The position numbers were made by a program, and so were the translations under genes. A DNA stretch of 64,000 bases, from the NCBI GenBank assembly GCA_014898415.1, contig RCTD01000014.1:496001-560000 (forward strand), written 5' to 3'. The notes beneath the pieces were generated by a model that saw nothing but the letters and a program-made list of their open reading frames with translations, made no database searches and was not told the origin of the DNA. This DNA comes from Stromatinia cepivora (taxonomy: Eukaryota > Ascomycota > Leotiomycetes > Helotiales > Sclerotiniaceae). Of the stretch, positions 26,946 to 52,558 are shown piece by piece; position 1 is the first letter of the stretch, and every line of letters begins with the position of its first letter.

Positions 26946-26981
26946 ATGGTTGCGTTGAACTAAGAACTTGAACGCAACCAT
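26946..26981. repeat. 11-bp perfect inverted repeat
   Basis: ATGGTTGCGTT (26946-26956) and AACGCAACCAT (26971-26981) face each other across 14 bases. TAGTATCAAT occurs as a direct repeat on both sides, so this may be a tiny insertion or a remnant. Confidence 0.7.
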
Positions 26982-27241
26982 GCCGTAGTATCAATGTTGA
27001 TTACTCCGATTTGGCTTGATGTATGATTGTATCGATAAGTCCCCTACTCTACATTCCGGCTACCCCCCCCATTCCGGCCACCTTAAAAATCATATTGCTA
27101 TAATAATATTTAATTTTTAAATCTTAATAATTCAATAATTATTATATTAATTGATCCGAAATTTTAATATTATTTTAATTATATTATAAAGAAATCATAT
27201 ATCGAAGATAATATTGTAATAGTATTAAATATAATCGCAAT

Positions 27242-27426
27242 TGTGAGAATAAAGAATCGGTTAATATTCGAATAACAATAGGTTTGGTTTTAGAATCAAA
27301 ACTTTTCATTACTTTCTTCAATTGTTTTAAAGAATTCTCTATCTATATAAATAAAAACTCTTCAAACTAATATATAATTCAATTCGTTTTCGATTAGCCT
27401 TTGTTTTATAATTAAGGTTTGTAATA
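27242..27426 (+). repeat. F-family LTR, left copy
   Basis: 185 bp, heavily transition-mutated. Aligned with the solo copy at 40,357, a 20-base stretch beginning TTC near its middle differs at seven positions, all C-to-T or G-to-A. Confidence 0.8.
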
Positions 27427-27822
27427 GAGCTCTTCTTTTCGAAACTTTCGTTTTCGAAAGTTTTTGATATTGAAATGAAATTATTTAAATTGAAATATTC
27501 AATCAAAACTAATATCATTCGATATTGTATTATATATCTTTTCGTAAAACTAGTATAAATCTATTGATATTGTATTATATACCTTTTCGTAGAATTATTA
27601 TAGATCTATCGAAACTCTTTCAATTTTTCCAAATTTCATTAATTTCTATAATAATGAAATTATAATATTTATATTTTCATTTTATGAAATTTAGTATCTT
27701 TACTTCTTTGAAAACTCTTTAATATTATTTAAAAATCTTTATATATATATATTCAATTTCGATCTATTTTCATTTTGATTTTGATATGATTTCGATAAAT
27801 ATGCTTTCGATGCGTATATTTT

Positions 27823-28104
27823 TGTCACGAATCGTGAACCACAGGAGGCTAATCACGTGATACCTCTTATCTCCCATATCAATTGATGAGCTGATCGTCT
27901 GTGTACATACATTACGATTTATACGATTTAGTATGGTAAAATAATGATCCTAATAATGTATGTATACAGTTCTACAATTCATATATGGGTATTTGTATAT
28001 ATATATATCTAATCGTTTTTTATGAGCTATAGTTCTTTAGTTGTAGATTCTAAGGAATATAATTGATTTTGTTTATTTAGCTTTATTATAGCTTTTATAT
28101 ATCA
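27823..28104 (+). repeat. 5' LTR of copy B
   Basis: Begins TGTCACGAATCGTGAACCAC and runs about 282 bp to a degenerate end (ATATCATA where related LTRs read ACATTACA or GCGTCACA). Confidence 0.88.
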
Positions 28105-28877
28105 TATTATCTACAATTCATTTATAAATATTTGGTTATCTAATGGCTTCTTAAATGAACTTTTACAAATATTATATCCAAAAAAAAAAATCTATTCTGA
28201 TTTAATCGATGAAGATATAAAACCCTTTTAGAAATATACCACTATTTTTACAATATAACAAATTCCTTCTTTTGTATATTCCGAATCTTTGAAAACCTAT
28301 TCTGAGGAACTCTTTCCTTCTTTTTAATTATTTCAATAATCTTTCAAAGAAAATAGGAATATAGATTTAGATAATATTATTATTGGAAAAAAGAAAACTA
28401 ATAAAAAGAAGATTTCAGTATATAAAATCGATGTTTTCAATGATTTAAATATTTCTTTCGATTTATTATTATAATTATAAGATTTTTATATAATAATTAT
28501 AAATTTGAAAGAAGAAAATCGATAATTGAAAATTATAATGATAATAAGTTTTGCAATAATATAATTTCCTTTTGAACTCTAAATAATATTTATATAAGTA
28601 TTTAGATTAATAATAATATTTGGGATTCTTTTTATTTCTTTAATTATGTCAGAATCACAAATGGTAAAGAATCAATTAGTCCTAAAACAACTATAAAACT
28701 TTTCATTATCCTTTTCTAATTAAGAGAACCTTTTTTTTTTAAATCCAATAAAGAATGATATCGAAACGATAACAAACTGTTGATTATATATTAGAGTTTA
28801 ATAAATGCAGAGATTTTACAGAGTTTTCTAATCAATCGACAGCAGACCGCCGGTTGTACGTTTGCCTTTAACAATAA

Positions 28878-29159
28878 TGTCACGAATCGTGAACCACAGG
28901 AGGCTAATCACATGATACCTCTTATCTCCTATATCAATTTATGAGCTGATCATCTGTATATATGCGTTATGAATCATACGATTTAATATAGTAAAATAGT
29001 AATCCTAATAATGTATATGTACAACTTTGTAATCTACAAATAGGTATTTATGTATATATATCTAGTCGTTCTTTATAAGCCATAATTCTTCAATTGTAAA
29101 TTCTAAAGAATATAATTGACCCTGTTTATTCAGCTCTACTACAGCTTTTGTACATTACA
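28878..29159 (+). repeat. 5' LTR of copy A
   Basis: 282 bp, TGTCACGAATCG...TACATTACA. The downstream 29,160-29,720 is nearly collinear with 28,105-28,700, confirming that A and B are copies of one family. Confidence 0.93.
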
Positions 29160-29729
29160 TTATCTACAACTCATTTACAAATATCCGATCATCTAATGGC
29201 CTCCCAAATAATACCTCACTTTAATAATACTTTCTTAAGTAAACTTTTATAAACATTACACCCAAAGGAAGAAGATCTATTCTGATCTAATCGATAAAGA
29301 TATAAACACTTTTAAAAGTGTATCATTACTTTCATAATACAACGAACTCCTTCTCCCATATACTCCAAATCTTCGAAAGTATATTCTGAGGAATCCTTTC
29401 CTTCTCCTTAATTATTTTAATAATCTTTCGAAGAAAATATAAATACAGAATTGGATAACATTATTATTAGAAGAAAGAAGACTAGTAAAAAAAAGATTCT
29501 AATATATAAAGCCGATATTTTCAACAATTCAATTGCTTCTTCCAAATCATTATTATAATTATAAGATCTTTATACAATAATTATAAATTTGAAAAAGAAG
29601 AATCGATAATTGAAAATTATAATGATAACGAATTTTACAATAATATAACCTTCTTTTGAACCCCAAATAATGTTTATATAGATATCCAGATCAATAACAG
29701 TATCTAAGATTCTCCTTATTTTTTCAATC

Positions 29730-32700
29730 GAAATTCAAGGACCTTCATCTAAGCAAACCCGAAGATCCCGAAGTCAGAGGAAGAAAACTTTGATCAGACG
29801 ATTTGATCATTCGGGGCCTTCCGATAAGTCTTCTTCTCTTTCAGAAAGTGACGATCCATCTAATAATTAGGGATCCCTTTATTCAAGAAACCAACCTAAT
29901 CGATCAAGATTGTATTCCTGTATTAATCACAATTTGCAGCAAGATATATATATACCAAAACCTACAAATCTTATTATTAAATTTAATGATAATATTGAAT
30001 TTAAAATTAATTTGTAGTAATTATTGATTATAGAATAACTCGAGTTATATATTATATTATTTAAAAATGAAATGCAACGCTATGTATATATAATCGACCA
30101 AACCGAATCGAAAGTATAAATATATTATCATACTTTTTATATACAAATACCCCGATTTACAATATTCGAATTGATCAAACAATTTATAACGATCTATCGG
30201 AACCCAGCCGAAATTGATAATGCTCATTCTCAATACAAAATATGGATTATGCTTAATACAATTCAATATAGCAACTTCTTAGAATAATATAGAAAGTTCA
30301 GATTATTTGCTACTCAAACAAAGATTATCGATAATAAAGTTCTATTCAAGGATCTCGAATAAAAGATTTCCGATTTTCTCTTACAAATAGTAATAATATC
30401 CATCAAGGATTATAAGATTACAAAAGAATTCGCGAATATACTTATTAGAATAAATCAAAACGAAGTTTCATTATAAAAACGAAACCAATATTATATTAAT
30501 CAAGAAACCTTTGTAATTATTTGTAAATCAATAACTATTACAAATCCCTTACAATCCTTTCGGAATTCTAATAATTCCAATTTTGGAACCTTTATATTCC
30601 CGAAATCGTTTCCATTCCAGAATACTCTTTTCAGATATATTGGCCTTACTATACTTAATAACTATTCGAATTTCAAATACTTATTGCTCTTTCCCTTTTC
30701 TGAAATAGTATATACATTAATGTCTTGTATTGATAACCTTAATAAGATTGAGATGGTATAAAAAGAAACAGAAGAATTCGAAGAATATTGAGATGCCAAA
30801 AAAGACTTCAATTCAGAAACTATAATTGAAATTATATAGAATATCCGTTTAAAAGAAAAAAAGCGTTTAAAACTAAATATTTAGATTCTATCTCCATTCT
30901 AAACGTTATACAGAATATAAGATTTCTTAATTTAATCAAACTTATAGAAGGAAAAGTATTCATCTTTTCCTACAACTTTTCGAAAAATGATTACATTTAT
31001 TGATTAAAAGCACTCATTGATTCTAAAGCAAATGAATTCGTTTTTATTAATATTATACTCTTTATTTATTTATTTCCTATATTTAAATCAAGAATTATAT
31101 TATTTGAAGTTTCAATTGAAGTTAAAGAGTATAATGATATACAAGGTTATACTATTATTTATTTTATATTCCTTAATTTAATGGTTGATAATTATGAACA
31201 ATCTTTTATCCCTTTCCTTATTATTGAATTAGGGAGTTATAGTATTATTTTAGATAGACTTTGATTATTAGAGATTCGAACAAAGTTCGATTATTTCAAT
31301 CAATATTTCGAATAGTCTAAAAAAAGATCTTGTATTATCTTCTATTCGAATAATCTTTTTATTATTTAATCATTCTTTTATAAATAGAAGATCGATCAAT
31401 TAATTTAAGATAACTAATTCAAAGAATATTGGAATCGAAGAGATTCACAATTGAGCAGATCAATCATAATTGATAATGTACAACAAGAACCTTTAAATAT
31501 AAATACAATACAGATTTTTATTGAAAAAAAAGAAGTTCTGATTCCTTTCAAATTCAATTTATTTTTTTCCCAATTAATTATACCATTATTACAAATCTAC
31601 AAATACCTCTTCTATATATCACCCGAAATCCTTGATCTATATATATTCAAACTTAATAAATTCCAATTAGAATATAAAAAAGATAAACAAATTGAACTCT
31701 TTATTATTACTTTGAAAAAACTCGATAATATAATAAATTCTTAACAAAACAAATAATATATAAAAGAAAGAATATTGGTTGCCTTAACCGAATTCAAGAA
31801 TACAAAAATTCGAAAGAAATTCGATTGAGTATTAACTAAAATCGATTCAGAATCTAAAATACTATTTGAATATCGATAATATTATCGAGCCTTTTCCAAA
31901 TATGAATCAAATATCTTGCCTTTTAATCAATCTTATAATTATAAAATCATATTAGAAGATAAAGGAGAATAAGTTTTACATTACAATCCGCTTTATAAAA
32001 TATCCTTAGAATAATTGGAAATCGTTAAAGAATATATTATAGATAATCTCAACAAAAGTTTTATTAAATTCAATCAAATCTTTTATATTATATTCATCCT
32101 ATTCATCAAGAAACCTAATGGTAATTTGAGATTCTATATAAACTTCAAATTATTGAATTCCTTAATATATAAGGATCGGTATTCCTTCCCTTTAATCAAC
32201 AAAACGCTTTTTTAGTTTTTCAATATTAAGATCTTTATCAAACTCGATATTCATCAAACTTTCTATTATATAAAAATAGATTCTGCTTCGGAAAAGTATA
32301 TTATTTTTCAAATCTAATATAGATTATACAAATACAAGGTTGTATTATTCGGATTAACGAATAATTTTATAATCTATCAGTATTATATGAATAATATTCT
32401 ATTCAATTATTTAAATATTTTTTATACAATATACTTTGATAATATTTTAATCTATTTCGAGAACAAAGAAGAACACCAAACTCATATTAAACTAATTCTC
32501 GAATGATTAAAAACCATTAATTTACAAACAGATCTCAAGAAATACGAATTCAATATTATATATATCAAATACTTGGATTTTATTATCTCTATTAAAGAAA
32601 TAAAAATAGATCCTAAAAAAATTGAGGTAATTGAGAACTGGATCTTTTTGATAACAATGAAAGGGATCCAATCATTCTTTGGTTTTTGTAATTTTTATTG

Positions 32701-34860
32701 ATAATTCATTAAGGATTACAATATAATAACGAAACCTTTCAACGAACTTATTAAAACAAATATTAAATTCGTATTCAATAAAGTATACTAAAACATATTC
32801 AATATCTTGAAGAAAAAGCTTATCTCCATTCCGCTTTTATAACATTATAATCACCGACTCCCCTATATATTCGAAATAAACATATCTGATAAAATAATTA
32901 CTAATATATTATCACAACAGTATAACAAAGATTAGTTTCCTGTAGCTTATTTCTCCAAAATCATAATTGCTATTGAATTGAATTACAAAGTTTATAACAA
33001 AGAAATACTATCAATCATTCGATCTCTTAATTATTAAAGAATGGAACTCATTAATTCATTATATAAAATCAAGGTTTATATTGACTATAAAACCTTCAAA
33101 TATTTCATAACTACTAAGATTCTCAACATCCAATAAACTCGCTAAACAGAAGTTCTAGCCGATTATAACTTCATCATTATATATCGCCTTGAAAAAGATA
33201 ACCCTTTCATTGATATCTTAATCTATCAGATCGACAAATTGGACCTTCAAAACTATACCAAGAAAAAGAATCGCCTTCAACAATTTATTAAAGATAATCA
33301 AGTTGATATCAAAATCATAAAAAAAGCTTTACAAAAACATCATCCAAACGAAACAATAATTATTAATATCGATTTAAGTAAAATCGCTTTTCGATTTGAT
33401 TTAGTTAATTATATCATCAAAACAAATAAAACTATAGATAACTTACTAACATTCAAAATACAAATTACTCAAAATCATAAATATATATTATTCCAAAATG
33501 ATCTTTTATTTTATAATAACCGTTTAATAATACCTGATATCAACAACCTTCGAATTTATCTGATTCATAAAACCCATAATTCCGTTTCCATTATTTATTT
33601 TAATACAAATAAAACCTATCTTTTATTATTTCAACAATATTATTGATCTAGAATACACAATACTATAACCAGATATATATATAATTATCATACTTACAAA
33701 TATAATTCTATTCTATATAATCATACTCCTGGTTTATTACATTCATTTTCAATTCCTAATCGAATATAATAATACATTATTATAGATTATTATAGTTTTA
33801 ATAAAGATAAATATAGATATAATAATATTTTAATCATTATTAATCGATTAATAAAGCAAGCTATCTTTATACTTTATCACAAATCAATCGATACTCGAAT
33901 TTAAGTACAATTATATCTCTATTATATATATCAATATTATAATCCCCTTAACATTATAATATCAAATCGCGGCCCCCAATTCATATTATAATTTTGAAAG
34001 GAATTCAGCCAAATCCTAGAAACCGATCTTAAACTATTCATTGCTCATTATCCCTAAACCAATGATCAAACTGAGATCTATAATCAATACTTTTAACAAT
34101 AATTAAAACCATTTATTAGTTATTATCAAAACGATTAATCAGAATTCCTATCTATAATGAATTACACGCAATTTACTCTTCTATACAACTCCTTAGAAGG
34201 GCTCGCACTCTACGAAACCCTATACAGGCATACACCGAAACATGCATGAAAATGGAAGGAAGACATTAATAAGCCAACAAACGATATAAATATGCATGAT
34301 GCCCGTATATACGCAGAACGCAATAGATTAGCTCTCATATAAGCGAAAGAAGGCTTATTGTATGCCCAAGCCAAGATATCGAAATCCATGAATACTTATT
34401 AGTGTAAAATCGATTTCGATATCGGAGATTATATATAATTTAATATAAAGAATTATTCTACTTAAAGATTATCCAAAAAACTGGACTTTCTAATTCAAGG
34501 AAGATTCAAGATCATTAATCGATCTAGGAGTTCTTTTAAATTCAAATTTCCGATTACAATGAAAATTCATTCTGTTTTCCCTTCAGATCGATTATATAAA
34601 GTATATAATAATTCTTTTCCTAATTAAATATTCGAATTATTTCCGTTTATTAATATAATTGATAATTCGGAATAGAAAATAGAGAAGGTTTTAGTAATAA
34701 AAAAAGCATGAAAAACCCTATTGTACAGAATCTCATAACTTAATAATAATATTGATTTTATTTGATATCCTATTTCAGATCTTAAAACATTATTGTACCT
34801 TCTACATGATTTTCATTTGGTCAATCCAATATTATCTGATCCTTTTAATCGATTAATTGA
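29730..34860 (+). pseudogene. Degraded gag-pol of copy A
   Basis: Recognisable in order: a gag-like region (29,730-30,960) without a visible zinc knuckle; a protease remnant near 31,015, where the expected D-S-G reads DSK in a LIDSKANEFVFIN context; reverse transcriptase from 32,015 with FIKKPNGNLRFYINFKLLN and, at about 32,436-32,460, YFDNILIYF where the family has YxDDILI. RNase H-like sequence lies near 32,860-33,220. Integrase runs from about 33,240, with SNRGPQFI where SDRGPQF is expected, a DQTE segment near 34,065, and a C-terminal YPISDLK...LLHDFHLVNP tail of the chromodomain-like type near 34,760. Many stops; no function possible. Confidence 0.85.
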
Positions 34861-35623
34861 TTAAATAAAGTTCTATGAAAGTGGAGAGGATAATTATAAT
34901 TATATGGATGACGATTTATTTATGAAATCAAAGAAAAGAAAAGTGTTCTTCAATAAAACAGACTAGATGTTATAATTTTATAATGATGTGTATATATACG
35001 ATTGTAAAAAGATCGAAAACTCATACAAATTCGAGGGAATTTGATCGTATATATATATAACCCGAGCTCTATACAATAGACAAACTATCATCACCAAGAT
35101 AATATAAAAGCAATATATTTCAAAAAACTTATGCTTATAATTATTTCAAAAATCATGCAAAAGGAAGCTTGAATATAGTAAAAACGAAATATAATATCAT
35201 CTTTATCGATTTCGTTCAATTTAATTGATTTGATCAATTTGGTCGATTAATTTGGTCGATTTCGGAATTGACCATATTAACCATCCATTATTACTATATT
35301 ATAATTCAACCTTCTTCCCTTTTTCTATTAAAACTTTTTTCTTTCAAAAATTCCCTAAATCAAGAAAAATATGAATCAATATTAATTTAACCAATTGATG
35401 AACGATTTGAACGATTTGATTAATTTATTTGTTATTTTGGTCAATTTGGTTGATTAATTTGGTTAATTTGGTCAATTTCCAGTAAATTGATCAAATCAAT
35501 CAAAATGATCAATCTAATTGATTTAGAGTTTATAAACCTTTACAAAATCTGGTTTCCGATGAAATAATAATGAAACAAAGGAATGAAATACTCAAGAACG
35601 AACTTTTCTGAAGGAAAAGATAA

Positions 35624-35905
35624 TGTTATAAATCGTGAACTATAGAAGACTAATTATATAATACCTTTTATCTCCTATATCAATTTATAAATTGATCATC
35701 TATATATATATATTACAAATCATACAATTTAATATAATAAAATGATAATCTTAATAACATATATATACAACCCCGCAACCTACAAATAAGTATTTGTATA
35801 TATATATCTAGTCGCTCTTTATAAGCTATAGTTCTTCAGTTATAGATTCTAAAGAACATAATTGACCCTGTTTATTTAGCTCTACTACGGCTCTTGTGCG
35901 TCACA
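35624..35905 (+). repeat. 3' LTR of copy A
   Basis: 282 bp, TGTTATAAATCG...CTTGTGCGTCACA, followed directly by the AATAA duplication. Confidence 0.93.
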
Positions 35906-35989
35906 AATAAAGCCACTTCCTTATAGAGATTCCTAACTTTACTAGCAACATCCTTCTAACAACCGTAACAAATTAAGAATTAAGGATCT

Positions 35990-38900
35990 TTATCTAAGCA
36001 AATCTAAAGATCCTGGGATCAAAAGAAGAAAACCTTAATCAAACGATTTGATTATCCAGGGTCTTTTGATAATTCTCCTTTTCTTTTAGAAAATGATGAT
36101 TTATATAATAATTAGAGATCCCTTTATTTAAAAAATCAATTTAACTGGTTAAGATTGTATTTCCGCATCAATTATAGTTTGTATTGAGATATATATATAT
36201 CAAAACCTACAAATCTTATTATTAAATTTAATAATGGTATTGAATTTAAAATTAGTTTATAATAATTATTGATTATAAAACGATTCGAATTATATATTAC
36301 ATTATTTAAGAATGAAATACAATACTATATTTATATAATTGATCAAATAGAATCGGAAATATAAGTATATTATTATATTCTTTATATATGAATACTTTGA
36401 TTCACAATATTCGAATCAATCGAATAATTTATAACGATTTATTGGAATCTGATTGAAATCGATGATATTTATTCTTAATATAAGATATAGATTATATTTA
36501 ATATAATTCAATATAATAATTTTCTAGAATGATATAGAAAGTTTAGATTATTTATTATTCAAATAGAAATCATTAATGATAAAATTCTATTTAGGGATTT
36601 TGAATAAAAGATTTCCGATTTTCTTTTACAAATAATAATAATATTTATTAAGGATTATAAGATTATAAAAAAAATTGTAAATATATTTATTAGAATAGAT
36701 TAAAATGAAGTTTTATTATAAAAACGAAATTGATATTGTATTAAATAAAATACTTTTATAGTTATTTGTAAATCGATAATTATTATGAATCCCTTATAAT
36801 TCTTTTGGAATTTTAATAGTTTCAATTTTGGAATCTTTATATTCCTGAAACCGTTTTTATTCCGGAATATCCTTTCTGAATATACAGATTCCGTTATATT
36901 CAATAATTATTCGAACTTTAAACATTCATCGCTTTCTTTCTCTCCTGGGATAATACATATATCGATACTTTGTATCGATAACCTTAATGAGATCGAGACG
37001 GTATAAGAAGAACTAAAAGAATATTGGGGTGCCGAAAAAGATTTCAGTCCAAAAGCTACAACTGAAATTATATAGAATACCTATTTAGAGAAAAAAAAGT
37101 ATTTAAAACCAAACATTTAGATTTTATTTCTATTTTAAATATTATACAGAATATAAGATTTCTTAATTTGATAAAACTTATAAGAAAAGAAATATTCATC
37201 TTTTTTTATAATCTTTTGAAGAATGATTATATTTACTAATCAAAAATATTTATTGATTCTAAAGCAAATAGATTTATTTTTATTAATATTATATTCCTTA
37301 TTTGTTTATTTCTTATATTTAAATTAAGAATTATATTGTTTGAAATTTCAATTGAAATTAAAAAGTATAATAATATATAAGATTATATCATTATCTATTT
37401 TATATTTCTTAATTTAATGATTAATAATTATAAATAATTTTTTGTCTTTTTCTTTATCATTAAATTAAAAAATTATAATATTATTTTAGATAAACTTTGA
37501 TTATCAAAGATTCGAGCAAAACTTAATTACTTTAATCGATATTTCGAATAATTTAAATAATTTCTTCATTATTTAATCATTTTTTTGTAAATAGAAAATC
37601 AATCGATTAGTTTAATAAAATATCGATCGATAAAATAATCAATTCGAAGAATATTAGAATCGAAGAGATTTATAATTGAATAGATCAATTACAATTGATA
37701 ACATATAACAAGAATCTTCAAATATAAATATAATATAGATTCTTATTGAAAAGAAAAAAGCCCTGATTTCTTTCAAATTCAATTTATCTCTTTTTCAATG
37801 AATTATATTATTATTATAGATCTATAAATACCTTTTCTATATATTATCCGAAATCCTCGATCTATATATATTCAAATCCAATAAATTTCAATTAGAATAT
37901 AAAAGAAATAAATAAACTGAATTTTTTATTATTATTTTAAAAAAATTCGATAGTATAATAAACTTTCAATAAAACAAATAATATACAAAAAAAGGAATAT
38001 TGATTATTTTAATCGAATTCAAGAATACAAAAGTTCGAAAGAAATTCAATCAAGTATTAACCGAAATCAATTCAGAATCTGAAATACTATTTGAATATCG
38101 ATAATATTATTAAACTTTTTCCAAATATAAATCAAATATTTTATCTTCTAATCAATTTTATAATTATAAAATCATATTAGAAAATAAAGGAAAAAAAGTT
38201 TTATATTATAATCCATTTTATAAAATATCTTTAGAACAATTGAAAATCATCAAAAAATATATTATAAATAATTTCAATAAAAATTTCATTAAATTCAATC
38301 AAACCCTTTATATTATATTCATTCTATTTATTAGAAAACTTAATAATAATTTAAAATTCTATATAGACTTCAGATTATTGAATTCCTTAATATATAAAAA
38401 TCAATATCCCTTTTTTTTGATCAACAAAATATTTTCTTGATTTTCTGATATCAAGGTTTTTATCAAACTTGATATTTATTAAGTTTTCTATTATATAAAA
38501 ATAGATTCTGTTTCAAAAGAATATATTATCTTTCGAATCCGATATAGATTATACAAATATAAGATTGTATTATTCAGATTAACGAATGATTTTGTAATCT
38601 ATTAATATTATATAAATAATATTCTATTCGATTATTTAGATATCTTTTATATAGTATATTTCAATAATATTTTAATCTATTTTGAAAATAAAGAAAAGTA
38701 TTAGATTTATATTAAATTAATTCTCGAACAATTAGAAGTTATTAATCTATAAATGGATTTTAAGAAATACAAATTCAATATTATATATATTAAATACTTA
38801 AACTTTATTATTTTTATTAAAGGAATAAAAATGAATCTTGAAAAGATTGAAATAGTTAAAAATTAGATCTTTTCAATAATAATAAAAAGGATTCAATTAT

Positions 38901-41280
38901 TTCTTAATTTTTATAACTTTTATCAATAATTCATTAAGAATTATAATATAATAACAAAACCTTTCAATGAATTCATTAGAACAAATATTAAATTTGTATT
39001 CGATAAAGTATATCAAAATATATTCAATATCTTGAAGAAAAAGTTTATCTTTATTCTATTCTTATAATATTATAATTATCGATTTCCTTATATATTCGAA
39101 ATAGATATATTCGATAAAATAATTACTAATATATTATTACAATAATATAATAAAGATTGATTATTTATAATTTATTTCTTCAAAATTATAATTATTATTG
39201 AATTGAATTACAAAGTTTATAATAAAGAAATACTATTAATCATTCGATCTTTCAATTATTGAAAAGCAAAATTTATTGATTTATTATATAAAATCAAGAT
39301 TTATATCGATTATAAGATCTTCGAATATTTCATAATTATCGAAACTTTTAATACTTGATAAACTTATTGAATAGAAATATTAATTAATTACAATTTCATT
39401 ATTATATATCACTCTAAAAAGAATAACCCTTTTATTAATATTTTAATCTATTAAATCAACAAATTGAATTTTTAGAATTATACTAAAAAAAAGAATCGCC
39501 TTTAATAGTTTATTAAAGATAACCAAATCAATATTGAAATTATAAGAAAAGCTTTACAAAAACATTATTCAAACGAAATAACAATTATTAATATCGATTT
39601 AAATAAAATTGCTTTTCGATTCGATCTAATTAACTATATTATCGAAACAAATAAAATTACAAATAACTTGTTAGTATTCAGAATATAAACTATTCAAGAT
39701 TATAAATATATATTATTTCAAAATAATCTTTTATTTTACAATAATTACTTGATAATATTCAATATCGATAACCTTTGAATTTATTTGATTTACAAAGCTT
39801 ATAATTTCGTTTTCATTATTCATTTTGGTATAAACAAAATCTATCTTTTATTATTTCAATAATATTATTGATCTAGTATATATAATATTATAACTAGATA
39901 TATATACAATTGTTATGCTTACAAACATAATTCTATTTTATATAATCGTACCCCTGATTTATTATATCTACTTCCAATTCCTAATCGAATATAGCAATAT
40001 ATCATTATGGATTATTATAATTTTAATAAGAATAAATACAGATATAATAATATTTTAGTTATTATTGATCGATTAATAAAGCAAATTATCTTTATACCTT
40101 ATTACAAATCAATTAATATTCGAATTCAAATATAATATTATTTTTATTATATATATCGATATTATAATCCTTTTGATATTATAATATTGAATTATAATCC
40201 TTAATTCATATTATAGTTCTGAAAGGAATTCAGTTAAATCTTAGGAACCGATTTCAAATTATCTATTGTCTATTATTCTCAAATCGATAATCAAATTGAA
40301 ATTTATAATCAATACCTTTAATAATAATTAAGATTGTTTATTAGTTATTATCAAAATGTGAGAATCACAGCAAAGAATCGGTTAATATTCGAATAACAAT
40401 AGGTTTGGGTTTAGAATCAAGACTTTTTCATTATTTTCTTTCTAATAGTATTGAAGAATTCCCTTCTATATAGATGAAAACTCTTCAAACTAGTGTACAA
40501 TTCGGCCCGCTTTCGGCTAGCCCTAGTTTCGTAGTTGAGGTTCGTAATACAAAACGATTAATTAGAATTCCTATTTATAATGGATTATATACAATTTATT
40601 TTTTTATGTGATTTCTTAGAAAGGCTTATATTCTATAAAATCTTATATAAATATATATCGAAATATATATCAAAATGAAAGGAAGATATTAATAAATTAA
40701 TAAACGATATAAATATATATAATATCTATATATATATAAAATATAATAAATTGATTTTTATATAAACAAAAGAAGGTTTATTATATATCTAAACCAAAAT
40801 ATTGAAATTTATAAATATTCATTGATATAAAATCGATTTCGATATCGAAGATTATATATAATTCAATATAAAAAATTACTTTATTCAAAGATTATTTAAG
40901 AAACTGAATTTTCCAATTCAAAGAAAATTTAAGATCATTAATCGATTTAAAAACTTTTTCAAACTCGAATTTTTGATTATAATGAAAACTCATCTTATTT
41001 TTCTTTCAAATCGATTATACAAAGTATACAACGATCCTTTTTTTGATCAAATATTCAAATCATTTCTATTTATTAATATAACTAATAATTCGGAATAGAA
41101 AATAAAGAAGATTCTAATAATAAAAAAAGCACAAAAAACCCTACTATATAGAATTTCATGATTTAATAGTAATATCAAATTCATTTAATATTTTATTTCC
41201 GATTTTAAAACATTATTATATCTTTTATATGATTTTCATTTAATCAATTCAATATTGTCTAATCCTTTTAATTGATTATT
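35990..41280 (+). pseudogene. Degraded gag-pol of copy B (remainder)
   Basis: Collinear with copy A but more AT-rich. Gag-like sequence spans 35,990-37,180, protease remnant near 37,245, reverse transcriptase 38,240-38,720 (FIRKLNNNLKFYIDFRLLN, then YFNNILIYF at the catalytic site), RNase H-like region to about 39,450, and integrase to about 41,270. Both catalytic aspartates of YxDD are lost. The integrase region is split by a solo LTR at 40,357. Confidence 0.8.
40357..40549 (+). mobile_element. Solo LTR of F family inside copy B
   Basis: 193 bp, TGTGAGAATCACAG...GTTCGTAATA, flanked by an exact 5-bp duplication CAAAA (40,352-40,356 and 40,550-40,554). The corresponding site in copy A (near 34,130) reads straight through TATCAAAACGATTAAT, which is an empty-site control. 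It keeps more C and G than the left F LTR. Confidence 0.93.
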
Positions 41281-41848
41281 TGATTAAATAAAGCTTTATA
41301 AAAGTAAAAAGGATAATTATAATTATATAAATAACAATTCATTTATAAAATTAAAGAAAAGAAAAATATTCTTCAATTCAACGGATTAGATATTATAATT
41401 TTATAATAATATATATATATAATCGCAAAAGGATCGAAAATCTATACAAATTCGAAGGAATTTGATTGTATATATATATAGTTCGAATTTTATATAACAA
41501 ATGAATTACTATTATCAAGACAATATGAAGGCAATATATTTAAAAAATTTATATCTATAATCATTTCAAAAATCATACAAAAAGAAAGCTTGAATATAAT
41601 AAAAACGAAATATAATGTTACCCCTATTGATTTCGTTCAATTTAATTGATTTGATCAATTTGATCGATTAATCTGATCGATTTCGGAATTGATCATATTA
41701 ACCACCCATTATTATTATACCATAATTCAATCCTCTCCCTTTTTCTATTGAAACTTTTTCTTTTTAAAGATTCCCTAAATCAAGAAGAATACGAATCAAT
41801 ATTAATTTACTTAATTAATAAACAATTTGATCAATTTGATCAATTCAT

Positions 41849-42189
41849 TGTTACAACGGGTCCTTGCGAAGTACCGCGTCATATGACTATGAACAAGTAA
41901 CGGAGCGTCAAGGAGTTACAATGTTTCTGGAGTGTAGTGAGGTCTGTAGATATCCAATATATTAAAGAGGTCTTAAGAAATAAAATAGAAAACAAAAGTT
42001 TATATAAGGGAATGGGTTTTATTATAATATAAAGTTTCGTACTTAAAAACAATCATTAGTTTCATTACTATAATTACAAGAATTGCAATCAGTTACAACC
42101 ATATTGAATTCCTACTTGAAGTCTAGTCTAAACCACCTCAAGAGATCTCTAGCCACTTCCACATGACCCTAGAGGCAGCTCCTGTAACA
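41849..42189. mobile_element. Solo LTR of a third family inside copy B, little mutated
   Basis: 341 bp with TGTTACA...TGTAACA termini and an exact 5-bp duplication TTCAT (41,844-41,848 and 42,190-42,194). Composition is close to normal, unlike the AT-rich host. A TATATAAG box lies near 42,001. Copies A and C lack it at the equivalent position. Confidence 0.92.
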
Positions 42190-42389
42190 TTCATTCATTA
42201 TCTTGATCAATTTGATCGATTATTTTGGTTAATTTGATCAATTTCCAATAAATTAATCAAATCAACCAAAATGATTAATCTAATTGATTTAGGGCTTATA
42301 AATCTTCACAAAATTTGATTTCTGATGAAATAATAGTGAAATAAAGGAGTAAAACGCTTGAAAGCGAGCTTTTCCAAAAGGGGGAGTAG

Positions 42390-42673
42390 TATTACAAATT
42401 ATGAATTATAGAAAGCTAATTATATAATACTTTTTATCTTCTATATCAATTGATGAATTGATTGTTTGTATATATACATTACGATTTATACGATTTAGTA
42501 TAATAAAATAGTGACCCTAATAATATATATATATAACCCTGCAGTTCATATATAGGTATTTGTATATATATATATTTAATCGCTTTTTACGAGCCATAAT
42601 TCTTCAATTGTAGATTCTAAGGAACATAATTGACCCTGTTTATTCAGCTCTACTACGGCTCTTGTGCGTCACA
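42390..42673 (+). repeat. 3' LTR of copy B
   Basis: 284 bp, TATTACAAATTATG...CTTGTGCGTCACA, followed by the ATTTT duplication. Confidence 0.92.
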
Positions 42674-42679
42674 ATTTTC

Positions 42680-42955
42680 GTTGGGTATGCTTTTGATTCG
42701 GATTTGGTAGATATACTTTCGATTCGGATTCGATAGGTTTTCGGTAGATATGTTTTCGATTCGGATTCGATAGGTTTTCGGTAGATATGTTTTCGATTCG
42801 GATTTGATAGGTTTTTGGTAGGTATGCTTTCGATTTGGATTCGATAGGTTTTTGGTAGATATACTTTTGATTTGGATTCGGTAGGTTTTCAGTGGGTATA
42901 CTTTCGATTCGGATTCGATAGGTTTTCGGTAGATATACTTTCGATGAGTATATTT
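42680..42955. repeat. 37-bp tandem repeat, about seven copies
   Basis: Imperfect head-to-tail units with the core GGTAGATATACTTTCGATTC then GGATTCGATAGGTTTTC. The period is 37, not a multiple of three, yet the minus strand stays open across it (42,669-43,109), giving a 37-residue super-repeat. It lies in the internal DNA of element F beside the insertion point of copy B. Confidence 0.85.
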
Positions 42956-44119
42956 TCAATTCGATTTTGATAGGTATATTTTCAATTCGAATTCGATATA
43001 CTTTCGATGTAATGAATAAAGGATATTGATATCTTTCTTTTTGGATCGATATCTCTATTGATTTTAATGATTCTGTAGATTTGATAAATAATAAAAAAAG
43101 GGTTTTCAATTTACTTTTTCTTTTGAAATTTGGAATATAAAATCTATTATTTTAAAAGAATATAAGTTTTGTTTTTTTAGAATCTGAATTTCTGAAAATG
43201 GAAAAATGAAAAATGATTAATTGTTAGTAGCAAATTATATATTTATCAATATATCGATTCAAATTTATATCAAAATGATATTTTCAATATAAATATTATT
43301 TCGTTTTTAGTTAATATATTAGTTTTCTGATATGGATTTAATTGTTTACAATTAGTTTTTATTAATGATTTTTCAGAATTATATAAGGATTAGTTTCATT
43401 TTTCTTTTTGGAAGAGGTTTGATATTCTATTAAAGGGAAAAGACTTTAAATATTCTATTAAGGTTTTGTTTAAAAATAGAAATGTAGTTATTATTGGATA
43501 TAAATTTGTTTATTATATTCTTTAAAGATAATATCAAAAGCTTTATAATAATCTCAATTTAAATATTTTCAATTTCAATATCTTCAATTTTAATATCTTC
43601 AATTTCAATATCTTCAATTTTTTCAACTATTTTTATATTCAAAATTCTTTAGTTTTTTAATAAGATTTAAGGGTTTTTTATATACTTTTTGTTTTTTCGT
43701 TTTTTTGTTTGAATGATTTATATGATTTAAAAATTCACTTTCGAATTTCATAAAATAAAGTAGGGTTCGATTCGTATATCATATTTATATTTTTCGAATA
43801 AATCTTTTCAATTTCTTTTTTTGTTTTCTTGATTTTCTTGATTTGAAGGTTTTTTGTAGTATTTTTGATAGGTTTTCGATAATATTCCGAAGGGTTTTTG
43901 AAGGTTCATTTTGAGGCCAAATTCGTATATATTTCGAAGATGAATTTCGAAGGGTTTCGATAATATTTTGAAGGATCTCAAAAGTTTATTTTCTAGATTT
44001 AATTCGATGATTTCTTTTCAAAGGTTTTTCGATAAAGTTTGAAGGCTTTTGTAAATCAAAAAATGAGGTTATTCTCAAAATTAATCGACGAATTGTTTTC
44101 CAGGGTGAATGAAAAGAAT
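42956..44119. other. Internal DNA of element F, no gene
   Basis: AT-rich. A TCAATTTCAATATCT-type direct repeat lies at 43,560-43,625. Repeated TCGAAGG/TTTTGAAGG strings occur at 43,850-44,050. No recognisable protein in either strand. Confidence 0.5.
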
Positions 44120-44229
44120 TATGAGAATTATAGTAAAGAATTGATTAATATTCGAATAACAATAGATTGGGTTTAGAATCAAGATTTTTCATTACTTCTT
44201 CTAATCATATTGAAGAATTCTCCTCTTAT
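44120..44229 (+). repeat. F-family LTR, right copy, left piece (split by copy C)
   Basis: Matches the first 110 bases of the F LTR and continues at 51,278-51,357 after removal of copy C and one CTTAT duplication. Confidence 0.85.
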
Positions 44230-44511
44230 TGTGACGCACAAGAGCCGTAGTAGAGCTGAATAAACAGGGTCAATTATATTCCTTAGAATCTACAATTAAA
44301 GAATTATAGCTCATAAGGAGCGATTAGATATATATACACAAATACCCATTTGTGGGTTACGAAGTTATATATATATATTATTAGGGTTATCATTTTACTA
44401 TATTAAATTATATGATTTATAATATATATATATAGATGATTAGCTTATAAATTGATATAGGAGATAAAAAGTATTATGTAATTAACCTTCTATAATTTAT
44501 AATTCGTAATA
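44230..44511 (-). repeat. 3' LTR of copy C
   Basis: TGTGACGCACAAGAGCC at the left edge. On the minus strand the right edge reads TATTACGAATT, preceded by the purine tract AAAGGGAAGAATAG. Confidence 0.92.
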
Positions 44512-45289
44512 CTATTCTTCCCTTTGGAAAAGTTCACCCTCGAATATTTCATTTTTTTGTTTTATTGTTATTTTATCGGAAACCAGATTTTGTAAAGGTT
44601 TATAAACTCTAAATCAATTAGATTAATTATTTTAATTGATTTGATCAATTTATTGGAAATTGACCAAATTGATCAAAATAATCGATCAAATTAACCAAAA
44701 TGACGAATGAATTGATCAAATCGATCAAATCGTTCATCAATTGGTTAAATTAATATTGATTTATATTTTCCTTGATTTAGGGAATCTCTGAAAGGAAAAA
44801 GTTTTAATAAAAAAGGGAAAGAGATTGAATTATAATATAATAATGATGAATGGTTAATATGATCAATTCCGAAATCGATTAAATTAATCGATTAAATTGA
44901 TCAAATCAATCAAATTGAACGAAATCGATAGAGGTGATATCACATTTCGTTTTTATTATATTCAAGTTTCCTTTTGTATGATTTTTGAAATGATTATAGG
45001 TATAAATTTTTTGAAATATATTGTCTTTGTATTATCTTGATGGTGGTAGTTCGTTTGTTGTATAGAATTCGGACTATATATGTATACAATCAAATTCCCT
45101 TGAATTTATATGGGTTTTCGATCCTTTCATAATTATATATATATATACTATTATAAAATTATAATATTTAATTTGTTGAATTAAAGAACACTTTTTTTTC
45201 CCTTAATTTTATAGATGAATCGTTATCTATATGATTATAATTATTCTTTTTACTCTTATAGAGTTTTATTCAATCAATTAATCGATTGA

Positions 45290-48200
45290 GAGGATCAAGC
45301 AACATTGAATTAGCTAGATGAAAATCGTATAGAAGATATAAAAATGTTTTAAGATCGGAAATAGGATACCAAATAAGATCGGTATCACTATTAAGCTATG
45401 AAACTCTGTATAATAGAGTTTTTCGTACTTTCTTTATTGTTAAAACCTTTTCCACTTTTTATTCTGAATTATCAATTATATTAATAAACAGAAATGATTC
45501 GAATATCTGATTAGGAAAAAGATCGTTATATATCTTATATAATCGATTTAAAGGGAAAACAGAATGAATTTTCATTGTAATCGGAAGTTCGAATTTGAAA
45601 GAGCTTCTAAATCGATTAATGATCTTGAATCTTTTTTGAATCGAGAAATCCAATTTTTTGGATGATCTTTAAATAGGGTAACTCTTCATATTGAACTATA
45701 TATAATCTCCGATATCGAAATCGACCTTATATCGATAAATATTCATGGATTTCGATATTTTGATTTGGATATACAATAAATCTTCTTTCGTTTGCACAAA
45801 AACTAATCTATTACATTCTATATATATATGAATATCATATATATTTATATCGTTTATTGACTTACTAGCGTTTTCCTTTCATTCCTATACACATTTCGGT
45901 GCATACCCGTATAGGGTTTCGTAGGATGTAAGCCCTTCTAAGGAGTTGTATAAAAGAGTAAGTTGTATATAATCCATTATAAATAAGAATTCTGATTAAT
46001 CGTCTTGATAATAACTAATAAACGATTTTAACTATTGTTGAAGGTACTAATTATAGATCTTAATTTGACCATTAGTTTGAGGATAATAAACAATGAATAA
46101 TTTGAAATCGATTTCTAGGATTTGATTGAATTCCTTTCAGAACTATAATATAAATTGGAGACTGCAATCCGATATTATAATATCAAGGGGATTATAATAT
46201 CGATATATATAGTAGAAATATAGTTATACTTAAATTCGAGTATCGATTGATTTGTAACAAGATATAGAGATAGTTTGCTTTATTAATCGATCAATAATGA
46301 TTAAAACGTTATTATATTTATATTTATCCTTATTAAAATTATAATAATCTATAATGATATATTGTTATACTCAATTAAGAATCGGAAATGGATATAATAA
46401 ATTAGGGGTACAATTATATAGAATAGAATTATATTTGCAAGTATGACAATTGTATATATATCTGATTACGATATCATGCATTCTGGGTTAGTAATATTGT
46501 TGAAATAATAAAAGATAGATTTTATTTATATTAAAATAAACAATGGAAACGGAATTATGGGTTTTATAAATCAAATAAATTCGAAGATTGTTGATATCGG
46601 ATATTACTAAATGATTATTGTAAAGCAAAAGGTTATTTTGGAATAATATATATTTATAATCTTGAGTAATTTACATTCTGAATGTTAGCAAATTATCTAT
46701 AGTTTTATTTGCTTCGATGATATAATTAATTAGATCGAATCGAGAAACGATTTCATTTAAATCGATACTAATAATCGCTATTTCGTTTGGATAATGCTTT
46801 TATAAAGCTTCTTTTATGATTTTGATATCAATTTAATTGTCTTTAATAAGTTGCTAAAGGCGATTCTTCTTTTTGGTATAATTCTGAAGGTCCAATTCGT
46901 TGGTCTAACAAATTAAGACATCAATAAAAGGGTTATTTTTTCCAGGGCGATATATAATGATAAAGTTATAATCAGTTAGAACTTTTGTTTAACGAACTTA
47001 TCGAGTATTAAGAATCTTGATAATCATGAAATATTCAAGGACCTTATAATCGGTATAAACCTTGATTTTATATAATGAACCGGCGAATTCTGCTTTTTAA
47101 TAATTAAGAGATCGAATGATTAACAGCATTTCCTTATCATGAATTTTGTAACTCAGTTTAACGATAATTATAGTTTTAGAGAAATAAGCTATAGGAAATT
47201 AATCTTCGTTATACTGTTATGATAATATATTAATAACTATTCTATCAGATACATCTGTTTTGAATATACAAGGGAATCGATGATTATAATATTGCAAAAA
47301 CAAAGCAAAGATAAGCTTTTTCTTCAAAATATTGAATGCATTTTGGTATACTTCGTTGAATATGAATTTAATGTTTACTTTAATGAATTCATTAAAAGGT
47401 TTCGTTATTATACTATAGTCCTTAATGAATCATTGATAAAAATTGCAAAAACCAAGAAATGATTGGATCTCTTTTATTGTTATTAGAAAGATCCAATTCC
47501 CAATTATTTTAATCTTTTCAAGATCTATTTCTATTCCTTTAGTAAAGATAATAAAGTCCAAATACTTGATATATATAATATTGAATTCATATTTCTTGAG
47601 ATCTGCTTATAGATTAATGATTTTTAATCATTCAAGAATTAATTTAATATAAATTTGATATTTTTCTTTATTTTTAGAATAGATTAGAATATTATCGAGG
47701 TATATTGTATAGAAGATATTTAGATAATCGAATAGAATATTATTCATATAATACTAATAGATTGTAAAATCATTTATTAATCCGAATAATACAACTTTGT
47801 ATTTGTATAATCTATATCGGATTCGAAAGGTAGTATACTCTTTCGAAACAGGATTCATTCTTATATGATAGAAAGTTTAACGAATATCGAGTTTGATAAA
47901 GATCTTAATATCGGAAAGCCGAGAAAGCGTTTCGTCGATTAAAGAAAAGGGATACCGATTCTTATATATCAAAGAATTCAATAATCTGAAGTCTATACAG
48001 AATCTTAAACTATTATTGGGTTTTTTAACAAATAAAACGGATACAATATAAAGGGCTTGATTAGATTCAATAAAATCTTTGCTAAAATTATCTATAATAT
48101 ATTCTTTAACGATTTTCAGCTGTTCCAAGAATATCTTGTAAAACAGGCTATAATACAAAACTTATTTTCCTTTGCTTTCTAATATGATTTTATAATTATA

Positions 48201-50410
48201 AAATCAATTAAAAAACAAAATGTTTGATTCATATTTGAAAAAAGCTTAATGATATTATCGATATTCAAATAGTATTTCGGATTCTGAATCGATTTCGGTC
48301 AATACTCGATCGAATTTTTCTCGAACTTTTGTATTCTTGAATTCAATTAAAGCAATCAATACTCTTTCTTTCATATATCATTCGTTTCATCAAGAATCTA
48401 TTATATTATCGAATTCTTTTAGAATAATAATAAAAAATTCAATTTGTTTATCTCTTTTGTATTCTAATTGGAATTTATCAGATTTGAATATATATAGATT
48501 GAGGATTTTGAGCAATATATAAAGGAAGTATTTATAGATCTATAATAATGATATAATTGATTAGGAAGAAAATAAATTAAATTTGAAAAAAATCAAGGCT
48601 TCTTTCTTTTCAACAAGAATTTGTATTATATTTATATTTGAAGGTTTTTATTGTATATCACCAACTACAATTGATCTGTTCAATTATGAATCTCTTCGAT
48701 TCCAATATTCCTTGAATTGATTATTTTATCGATCAGTATCTTATTGGGCTAATCAATCGATCTTCTATTTATAAAGAAATGATTAAATAATAAGGAGATT
48801 ATTCGAATAGGAGATAATACAAGATCTCTTTTTAAATCATTCGAAATATCGATTGAAGTAATCGAGCTTCACTCGAATCTCTAATAACCAAAGTCTATCT
48901 AAAATAATATTATAACTCTCTAATTCAATAATAAAGAAAAGAACAAAAGATTATTCACAATTATCGATCGTTAAATTAAGGAATATAAAATAGATAATAA
49001 TATAGTCTTATATACTATTATATCTTTTAACTTCAATTAAAGTTTCAAATAATATAATTCTTGATTTAAATATAGGAAATAAACAAGTAAAAAATATAAT
49101 ATTAATAAAAACGAATTTATTTACTTCAAAATCAATAAATGCTCTTGATTGATAAATATAACCATTTTTCGAAAGGTTACAAAAAAGGATGAATGCTTTT
49201 TCTCTTATAAACTTAATTAAATCAAGAAATCTTATATCCCATATAATATTTAGAATAGAAACAGAATCTAAGCATTTGGTTTTAAATACTTTTCTTCTTT
49301 TAAGTAAGTATTCTGTATATTTTCAATTATAGCTTTTAAATTGAAGTCTTCTTCGGCATTCCGGTATTCTTTGAATTCTTCTGTTTCTTTTTGTATTGTT
49401 TCGATCTCATTAAGGTTATTGATACAAAGCGTTGATATACGTATTACTTCAGAAAAGGGAGAGGGCAACAAATGTTTGAAATTCGAATAATTATTAGATG
49501 TAATAGGGCCGGTGTATCAGAGAAGAGTATTCCAGAATGGAAATAGTTTCAGAAATATAAAGATTCCAAAATTGGAATTGTTAAAGCTCCAAGAAAATTA
49601 CAAGGAATTTATAATAACTATTGATTTGTAAATAATTATAAAGATTTCTCGATCAATACAATATCGATTTCGTTTTTATAATAAAACTTTGTTTTGATTT
49701 ATTTTAATAAATATATTTGCAAATTCTTTTGTAATCTTACAATCCTTAATAGATATTATTATCATTTGTAAAAGAAAATCGGAAATCTTCTATTCAAGAT
49801 CCCTGAATAGAATTTTATTATCAGTAATCTTTATTTGAATAACAAATAATCTGAATTTCCTATACCATTCTAGAAAATTGTTATATCGAATTATATTAAA
49901 TATAATCTATATCTTATATTGAAAACGAGCATTATCGATTTCGGCCGGGTTCCGATAAATCGCTACAAATTATTTGATCAATTCGAATATCATAAATCGG
50001 AACACTTGTATATAAAAAGTATGATAATATATTTGTATTTCCGATTCGGTTTGATCGATTATATATACACAATATTACATTTTACTTTTAAGTAATATAG
50101 TATATAATTCGAATTGTTTTATGATCAATAATTACTATAAACTAATTTTAGATTCAATATCATTATTAAATTTAATAATAAGATTTATAGATTTTGATAT
50201 ATATGTATTTTATTGCGAATTATGATTGATACGGGAATACAATCTTGATCGGTTAGATTGGTTTCTTGAATAAGGGAACCCCTGATTATTAAATAAATTG
50301 TCATTTTCTGAAAGGGAAAGAGAATTATTGGAGGATCTCAAATGATCAAATCATTTAATCAAAATTTTCTTCCTTTAACTTCGAGATCTTTGAGTTTGCT
50401 TAAATAAAGA
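45290..50410 (-). pseudogene. Degraded gag-pol of copy C
   Basis: Order on the minus strand: gag-like (about 50,410-49,170, including an open 67-codon piece at 49,471-49,268), protease remnant near 49,140, reverse transcriptase from 48,158, RNase H-like, then integrase to about 45,290. The RT piece 48,158-47,877 is the best preserved in the island, 93 open codons with FVKKPNNSLRFCIDFRLLN and SLIDETLSRLSDIKIFIKLD. The catalytic motif near 47,690 reads YLDNILIYS. Other parts are broken by stops. Confidence 0.85.
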
Positions 50411-50990
50411 TCTTTGAGTTTCGATTAAAGGAATAAAGGAAATTCCAAATACTGCTATTAATCTGAATACCTATATAAACATCATTTGGAGTTCAAAAGG
50501 AAATTGCATTGTTACAGAATTTATCGTTACTATAGTTTTCAATTATCGATTCTTTTTTTTCAAATTTATAATTATTATATAAAGATTTTGTAATTGTAAT
50601 AATAATTCGAAAAAAGTAATTGAATTATTAGAAATATTAGTTTTATATATTGGAATCTTTTCTTTATCAATCTTTTTTCTTCCAATAATAATATTATCCA
50701 ATCCTGTATTTATATTTTCTTTGAAGGGTTGTTGAAATAATTAAGGAGAAGGAAAGGGTTCCTCAGAATATGCTTTCGAAGATTCGGAGCATACAAAAAA
50801 AGAAATTCGTTGTATTATGAAAATGATGGTATATTTCTAAAAGGGTTTATCTTCGTCGATTAAATCGGAATAGATCTTTTTCCTCTAAATATAACATTTA
50901 TAAAAGTTTATTTAAAAAAGTATTATTAAAATGAAATATTATTTGAAAGGCTATTAGATAATCAGATACTTATAAATAAATTGTAGATAA

Positions 50991-51272
50991 TATAATGCAT
51001 AAGAACCGTAATAAAGCTAAATAAATAAAATCAATTATATTCCTTAGAATTTATAATTAAAGAATTATAATTCGTAAGAAACGATTAGATATATATATAC
51101 AAATATCTATTTGTGGGTTGCAGGATTATATATATATATTATTAGGGTTACCATTTTACTATATTAAATCGTATGATTTGTAATGTATATGTACGGATGA
51201 TCAGCTCATAAATTGATATGGGAGATAAGAGGTATCACGTGGTTAGCCTCCTGTGGTTCACGATTCGTGACA
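50991..51272 (-). repeat. 5' LTR of copy C
   Basis: 282 bp; the right edge reads CACGATTCGTGACA, followed by the CTTAT duplication. Confidence 0.92.
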
Positions 51273-51277
51273 CTTAT

Positions 51278-51357
51278 ATAGATGAAAACTCTTCAAACTA
51301 GCATACAATTCGGTCCGCTTTCAGTTAGCCCTAGTTTCGTAGTTGAGGTTCGTAACA
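51278..51357 (+). repeat. F-family LTR, right copy, right piece
   Basis: Continuation of the LTR begun at 44,120; ends GAGGTTCGTAACA. Matches 40,470-40,549 of the solo copy almost base for base. Confidence 0.85.
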
Positions 51358-51885
51358 ATATTTTCAATAAAAGTATTAAAGATTATATATTTGAAGATAA
51401 TAAAATTTATAATTTGAAAATAATAATTTGGAGATTATAATGAAATAAATAATTATAAAATTATAATAATAATAATATAAAGTTATATAAAAATATTATA
51501 TTATATATAATTAATAATATTGAATAATATTCGAATTCGGTTTTTTAATTTTTAATATTGAAAGTATAATTTTCTTATATATTTTTTTTCGAATTCTTTT
51601 ATATATCAATATCTTATTCTTATTTATCAATTTAAATAAAAATTCATTATTCTAATTATTTTGATTAATATTATAAAGATTCTTTATTTAAATATCTTTG
51701 AATATCTTTGATATTTAAATTAAATTAGAGTTACTTTATTTAAATACTTTTATATCAATGATTTCGATTGTAATATAAATAATATTATATAATTATAATA
51801 CAAATAATATTATATAATTGTAGGATAAATAATATTATATAATCATAGTATAAATCATATAATTATAATATTAATAATATTATAT
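51358..51885. other. AT-rich degenerate sequence
   Basis: No gene. A degenerate AT repeat (AATAATATTATATAATTATA type, three or more copies) lies at 51,770-51,885. Confidence 0.5.
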
Positions 51886-52095: not shown

Positions 52096-52376
52096 ATGTA
52101 ATTTGATCAGTTCCAATTCCCATTTCCCTTTGCAGTGTGCTATCGGGATGTACGTATCTCGACCTACCTCTTTCACAATATAAATTCGAATATAATATTT
52201 AAAGATTTATAATAATTTATGAATTTTGTATTAAAGAATATAAAGGAAATATAAAATTTCTTTAAATTTATTGAAATATTATTATTTTATTATAAAGAAA
52301 TATTTTTCTGAAAAATAATAATTCCTTTTTTTAATTAATATTTTTAAGTTTTTAAAATGATATTTATTAAAATATA

Positions 52377-52558
52377 ATAAAAAGAATAAAAGAATAAAAG
52401 AATAAAAGAATAAGAGAATAAAAGAATAAAAGAATAAAAGAATAAAAGAATAAAAGAATAAAAGAATAAAAGAATAAAAGAATAAAAGAATAAAAGAATA
52501 AAGAATAAAAGAATAAAAGAATAAAAGAATAAAAGAATAAAAGAATAAAGAATAAAAA
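52377..52558. repeat. 8-bp minisatellite (GAATAAAA)n
   Basis: About 22 copies of an eight-base unit, with a GAATAAGA variant and two seven-base variants. The minus strand is open through it (FFYSFILL type) only because the repeat lacks stops. Confidence 0.92.

What the first reader, a model, noticed from the sequence alone, without database searches (positions are those of the whole stretch)
27237..51362. Four-level nested LTR retrotransposon island with readable insertion order
Exact 5-bp duplications define A (AATAA), B (ATTTT), C (CTTAT) and two solo LTRs (CAAAA, TTCAT). A is inside B; B lies between, and C lies within, the LTRs of the short element F; the solo LTRs are inside B. Unnesting gives a relative chronology: F first, then B and C, then A and the solo LTRs into B. 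Seeing perfect duplications survive in DNA this mutated is unusual and lets RIP intensity be compared with insertion order.
Basis: partly seen in the sequence, partly recalled or inferred. Interest (0 to 1): 0.75.

Follow-up and report, generated by a model that had tools for sequence, protein, structure and literature searches.

The report
Nested, mutation-scarred retrotransposon island in fungus
A stretch of a fungal genome holds mobile elements inserted one inside another, and mutations shared by the short duplicated target sites suggest that the fungus's repeat-mutating defence acted between successive insertions; such nesting is common, but the readable order and the spared element ends are worth following up.

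Summary
The genome matches Stromatinia cepivora. The five stated duplications are exact. A does not sit directly in B: it lies in an unnoticed 291-bp solo LTR (X, duplication AATTA), which lies in B. F has no matching duplication, its LTRs do not pair, and it lies in an older repeat (H) that also carries another solo LTR (Y). Order: H > F > B > X > A, with two more solo LTRs in B and C in F's 3' LTR. Other genome copies align across the A, B and C joins. A, B and C belong to one large family differing almost only by transitions (16.8% versus 0.07% transversions over 2 kb), as RIP predicts; LTR divergence gives no age, and the usual indices miss this RIP because the 5' base matters most. B, the older host, is more mutated than A. 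Duplications survive partly because the outermost 40-80 bp of A, B and C largely escaped mutation. At four insertions both duplication copies share RIP-type changes that most or many other copies lack, so mutation and insertion apparently alternated. Nested RIPed islands are known; edge sparing and time-stamped duplications are the interesting part.

The parts
27036..27241 (.). H, left part: older host repeat in which F lies
   Evidence: L085 and L086 match from 27036
27242..27428 (+). F 5' LTR
   Evidence: Matches S1 and F 3' LTR
27429..27822 (+). F internal, left part; ends with B duplication ATTTT (27818-27822)
   Evidence: Join with 42679 on matches 38 of 38 best non-self rows
27823..42673 (+). 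B, with X, A, S1 and S2 inside; LTRs 27823-28106 and 42390-42673
28647..28877 (+). X solo LTR, left part; duplication AATTA 28642-28646
28878..35905 (+). A, full element; LTRs 28878-29159 and 35624-35905; duplication AATAA
35911..35970 (+). X solo LTR, right part; duplication AATTA 35971-35975
   Evidence: 39 of 39 non-self rows span the A join
40357..40549 (+). S1, F-type solo LTR in B; duplication CAAAA
41849..42189 (+). S2, solo-LTR-like unit (TGTTACA..TGTAACA) in B; duplication TTCAT
42679..44119 (+). F internal, right part, with 37-bp tandem repeats near its start
44120..44229 (+). F 3' LTR, left part; ends with C duplication CTTAT
44230..51272 (-). C, full element; LTRs 50991-51272 and 44230-44511
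51278..51357 (+). F 3' LTR, right part
   Evidence: 40 of 40 listed rows span the C join
51358..51885 (.). H, right part
   Evidence: L085, L087, L088
51886..52177 (+). Y, solo-LTR-like unit in H; only 4 flanking bases (ATAT) repeat
   Evidence: Absent from L085; 39 of 39 non-self best rows cover at least 288 of 292 bases
52178..52406 (.). H, continuation right of Y
   Evidence: L085 match 88%

Best explanation
This is a pile of LTR retrotransposons in Stromatinia cepivora, built by repeated insertion into DNA that the fungus's RIP-like defence had already mutated. Order: H, then F, then B into F and C into F's 3' LTR, then the elements that left X, S1 and S2 into B, then A into X. Each of these later insertions made a 5-bp duplication; LTR-LTR recombination then left X, S1 and S2 as solo LTRs. 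Between insertions, C-to-T and G-to-A mutation hit the repeated bodies but faded over the outermost 40-80 bp of A, B and C, which kept LTR tips and duplications legible. Shown: duplications, continuous joins, almost transition-only divergence, edge sparing in A, B and C, B more mutated than A. Inferred: that the enzyme is the RID-like methyltransferase found in the genome, that mutation happened in sexual cycles, and that changes shared by both duplication copies predate the insertion.
For: Duplications and joins. LTR pairs of A, B and C: 49, 56 and 53 transitions and 0 transversions in 282, 278 and 280 sites. 32 copies over 2 kb: transitions 16.8%, transversions 0.07%. B versus A 245:104 sites. 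Edges in A, B and C: first 40 columns 12/69 outer versus 50/69 inner; last 40 columns 1/51 outer versus 25/51 inner. Eight scorable C/G sites in the duplications of A, X, S1, S2 and B: 6 changed in both copies, 2 kept in both, 0 split (read). A methyltransferase with a short domain and no BAH match (P0121) and one with a long domain (L071) are present.
Against: Eight sites are few, and one (B site, position 1) is weak: G in only 3 of 13 copies. X-family copy L073 has flanks TTGAT/TTAAT, which would be a split duplication. 5'-edge sparing is not seen in the F family (13/37 versus 85/308) or in X solo LTRs (first 40 columns 27/114, no lower than their middle), only 3'-edge sparing. B's rank among 32 copies is biased, since the other 29 fetched copies were picked for similarity to C. 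F cannot be shown to be a single insertion.
Confidence: 0.75

Rival explanations
1. Same nesting, but all mutation came late: the pile formed first and was mutated afterwards, so shared changes in duplications are independent hits.
For: All layers are heavily mutated, and A and C carry similar loads (177:153 sites).
Against: 0 of 8 scorable duplication sites are split; at 50% change per copy the chance is about 0.004 (my arithmetic). Low edge rates make six double hits unlikely. B exceeds A.
Confidence: 0.17
2. F is one intact, very old insertion rather than a recombinant.
For: It hosts B and C; its internal part matches L002 and L003 along most of its length.
Against: No matching 5-mers; LTRs with 4 transversions and 3 gaps; L002 keeps duplication AATAA and, by eye, LTRs of one type.
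Confidence: 0.3
3. The mutations are not RIP but another transition-biased process such as methylation followed by deamination.
For: Standard RIP indices are negative for A, B, C and F, and CpA is only weakly preferred.
Against: CpG is the least mutated 3' context (0.40), against plain CpG deamination; changes sit in repeats on both strands; a RID-like gene is present.
Confidence: 0.1
4. The island is partly an assembly artefact.
For: Repeat-rich region; no reads seen.
Against: No N; the contig is 1.56 Mb; a misjoin would not give six exact duplications at LTR ends and continuous hosts.
Confidence: 0.03

Closest known systems
AT-rich, RIP-mutated transposon regions of Sclerotiniaceae, e.g. Botrytis fabae (PMC10971195, passages)
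   Same: TE remnants in AT-rich blocks attributed to RIP; Gypsy elements among the TEs
   Different: Here insertion order, duplications and per-site mutation are resolved; I did not see such an analysis in the passages
RIP in Sclerotinia sclerotiorum and Botrytis (PMC4352252, passages; PMC8959702, passages)
   Same: Transition-biased decay of TEs; RID-type genes; CpA plus CpT signatures; depletion of GpC and TpC reported
   Different: Here the 3' base matters little and the 5' base most: mutated fraction A 0.65, G 0.53, C 0.43, T 0.37
crapaud LTR retrotransposons of Podospora (PMC10787394, passages)
   Same: Solo LTRs less mutated than LTRs of full copies; LTRs variable in their 5' half (abstract), as in S2's family
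   Different: Different element and host; edge profiles were not in the passages I saw

Membership tests
LTR retrotransposon (A, B, C) | Paired direct LTRs with TG..CA ends | tested here: met
   RIP has changed some ends
LTR retrotransposon (A, B, C) | Short target-site duplication | tested here: met
   AATAA, ATTTT, CTTAT
LTR retrotransposon (A, B, C), Ty3/gypsy type | Reverse transcriptase, RNase H and integrase in gypsy order | tested here: inconclusive
   1 of 6 typed fragments hit Pfam RT_RNaseH_2 at 4.3e-5, below its curated cut-off; an RT-like stretch in C was recognised by eye from recall
Short non-autonomous LTR element (F) | Two matching LTRs, duplication, no coding domains | tested here: inconclusive
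   Met for duplication in copy L002; window F lacks a duplication and matching LTRs; one 157-residue fragment had no Pfam hit
Solo LTR (X) | One LTR with flanking duplication, repeated elsewhere as a unit | tested here: met
   AATTA; 39 of 39 non-self rows; 6 of 12 fetched copies with exact flanks
RIP (repeat-induced point mutation) | Transition-only decay of repeats on both strands | tested here: met
RIP (repeat-induced point mutation) | CpA as preferred target | tested here: inconclusive
   CpA highest of the 3' contexts but only 0.53 against 0.40-0.50; indices negative
RIP (repeat-induced point mutation) | RID-type methyltransferase in the genome | tested here: inconclusive
   P0121 has a short PF00145 domain and no BAH match, like class I; no tree built
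RIP (repeat-induced point mutation) | Acts premeiotically in crosses | not testable with these tools
   Needs crosses

The most novel reading that the evidence does not exclude
RIP in this lineage fades over the last 40-80 bp of dispersed repeats, so target duplications stay readable and act as time stamps. Nested insertions then record alternating rounds of transposition and RIP, hence repeated sexual cycles, in a fungus described as asexual, with a mutation context set mainly by the base 5' of the cytosine.
Probability: 0.45. Interest if true: 0.65.

Novelty: new member of a known kind. Interest (0 to 1): 0.5.

Why it matters
Nested transposon piles with RIP are ordinary in filamentous ascomycetes. 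This one is useful because host, insert and mutation can be ordered at single-base resolution. It offers a test of how far homology must extend for RIP to act (edge sparing), a way to time RIP against insertion that does not rely on LTR divergence, and genomic evidence on past sex in a pathogen called asexual (PMC3158057 passage). It also warns that index-based RIP scans can miss such an island.

Tried and rejected
LTR divergence as a clock: rejected, 0 transversions in 840 aligned LTR sites. CpA/TpA indices: rejected as a RIP test here. A first alignment had some loci in the wrong orientation; one search replaces it with 32 oriented rows. Family-wide edge test: the 22 F-type 3' LTRs were picked by similarity to a query with an intact end, so the contrast 33/660 versus 58/90 is biased; I rely on the within-element contrast in A, B and C. 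Not found: a 5'-edge contrast in the F family (13/37 versus 85/308, p=0.34) or lower change at the 5' edge of X solo LTRs (27/114). Not found: lower mutation of host B next to S1 and X; the S2 comparison there rests on 2 copies. C's duplication was dropped from the time-stamp count because the pyrimidine run varies in length. Pfam on typed fragments gave one weak hit. No methyltransferase tree was built and no structure predicted. Papers were seen as passages or listings, except part 1 of 3 of PMC5004834.
Full report
What the window is. The window is G000:C14:496001-560000 of a 55.7-Mb, 48-contig genome. A neighbouring gene matches Sclerotinia at 97-98%, and a methyltransferase gene matches Stromatinia cepivora at 99%; that protein's contig is listed at 2,842,903 bases, exactly the length of contig C4 here, on which the gene lies. 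The name Sclerotium cepivorum leads to the same taxon. GC is mostly 35-52% in the gene flanks and 12-30% from 27001 to 54000.

Anatomy. Self-comparison shows three copies of one element of about 7 kb: A and B on the plus strand, C on the minus strand. Duplications are exact for A, B, C, S1 and S2. Compared with A and C, B carries extra DNA at three places: S1, S2, and 300 bp surrounding A. The last is a solo LTR, X, with its own duplication AATTA; 39 of 39 non-self rows carry the unit across the A join (40 of 246 candidates scored), and 6 of 12 fetched copies have exact 5-bp flanks. So A lies in X and X lies in B.

F. Removing B and C leaves a short element of about 2.2 kb. Its joins align with other copies: 38 of 38 best non-self rows across the B site (the 55 further rows are partial pieces, and tandem repeats lie next to this join) and 40 of 40 listed rows across the C site. 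But F has no duplication, and its LTRs differ by 33 transitions, 4 transversions and 3 gaps in 176 columns. Copy L002 (2135 bp) has duplication AATAA and, by eye, LTRs of one type. I read F in this window as a recombinant of two F copies, though great age cannot be excluded.

Outer host. Of 38 non-self best rows for the joined outer flanks, 37 match the right side and 2 the left; one, C9:1620232-1620736, covers both. Its alignment (73% with gaps) also lacks 51886-52177, an LTR-like unit Y with 39 of 39 non-self best rows covering it nearly whole.

Mutation. Between LTRs of one element: A 49, B 56 and C 53 transitions, and no transversion in 282, 278 and 280 sites. Among 32 copies over 2 kb: transitions 16.8% (14.5-19.9), transversions 0.07% (0-0.3). 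Of 868 columns where at least two copies keep C or G, B has lost 64.6%, A 48.4%, C 45.6%, the other 29 copies 36.9-57.4%. Those 29 were the best matches to C, so B's first rank is biased; the B-A (245:104) and B-C (255:90) contrasts do not depend on them for choice of copy, only for calling sites. A and C do not differ (177:153). The one nested pair agrees with insertion order. X, S1 and S2 have higher GC (0.31-0.35) than A, B and C (0.19-0.25), in line with solo LTRs escaping RIP in Podospora (PMC10787394 passage).

Context. Loss depends on the 5' base (A 0.65, G 0.53, C 0.43, T 0.37; 19% of variance) more than on the 3' base (A 0.53, C 0.50, T 0.49, G 0.40; 4%). This makes ApC/GpT the main substrate and turns the usual indices negative for A, B, C and F. 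PMC8959702 mentions depletion of GpC and TpC in relatives (passage), so a role of the 5' base is not wholly new. In the listings of searches no title or abstract named ApC as the main context; I did not read those papers for it, apart from passages of PMC4352252.

Edges. The same LTR sequence is much less mutated where it faces foreign DNA than where it faces the element's interior: first 40 columns 12/69 against 50/69, last 40 columns 1/51 against 25/51 for A, B and C together. In eight 5' ends, loss is 0.08 in the first 20 bp, about 0.2 up to 80 bp and 0.44-0.61 beyond (five of the eight were picked by similarity to B's 5' end). In three 3' ends it is 3/75 within 60 bp and 0.28-0.48 beyond. 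Against a general rule: the F family (3 against 22 LTRs) and X solo LTRs show sparing at the 3' end only, the F sample being biased. Searches listed one paper each; the passages I read do not describe such a profile. [quoted passage not shown]

Time stamps. Scorable sites are duplication positions where some other copies keep C or G: A site 1 (G in 9 of 12 copies; changed in both duplication copies), X site 2 (C in 4 of 6, G in 6 of 6; both changed), S1 site 2 (G in 10 of 27, changed; C in 24 of 27, kept), S2 site 1 (C in 2 of 3, kept), B site 2 (C in 11 of 13, changed; G in 3 of 13, changed, weak). Of these 8, 6 are changed in both, 2 kept in both, none split. C's site is left out for alignment reasons. 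The simplest reading is that F was mutated before B arrived, B before X and S1, and X before A. Host B within 40 bp of S1 and X is as mutated as elsewhere (24/36 and 24/41), which fits mutation before insertion. Outside the window, copy L073 shows flanks differing by one transition, so splits do occur.

Machinery. PF00145 matches lie at five places. The protein matching L072 (P0121, 790 residues) has a short methyltransferase domain and no BAH match, as described for RID/Masc1; L071 has a long domain and a weak BAH match, as described for DIM-2 (class description from PMC4352252 passages). RIP occurs before meiosis (PMC4352252 passage), while PMC3158057 calls Sclerotium cepivorum asexual (passage). 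If the reading is right, sexual cycles occurred between insertions in its past.

Verdict.

Noticed in passing
window 52317-52634: Array of an 8-bp unit right of the island.
   Followed up: no
window 42644-42982: 37-bp tandem repeats inside F, next to the B insertion point.
   Followed up: partly
S2 family, L010-L020: Most other copies match only bases 136-341 of S2; the 5' part varies.
   Followed up: partly
L018: An S2-type LTR runs straight into an A-family LTR start (TGTCACGAATCGTGAACC), so it looks like another nested insertion.
   Followed up: no
window 26946-26983: Short inverted repeat (ATGGTTGCGTT..AACGCAACCAT) just left of H.
   Followed up: no
C9:747956-748294 and C9:756559-756866: Two S2-type units on the same strand 8.6 kb apart, perhaps the LTRs of a full element.
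   Followed up: no
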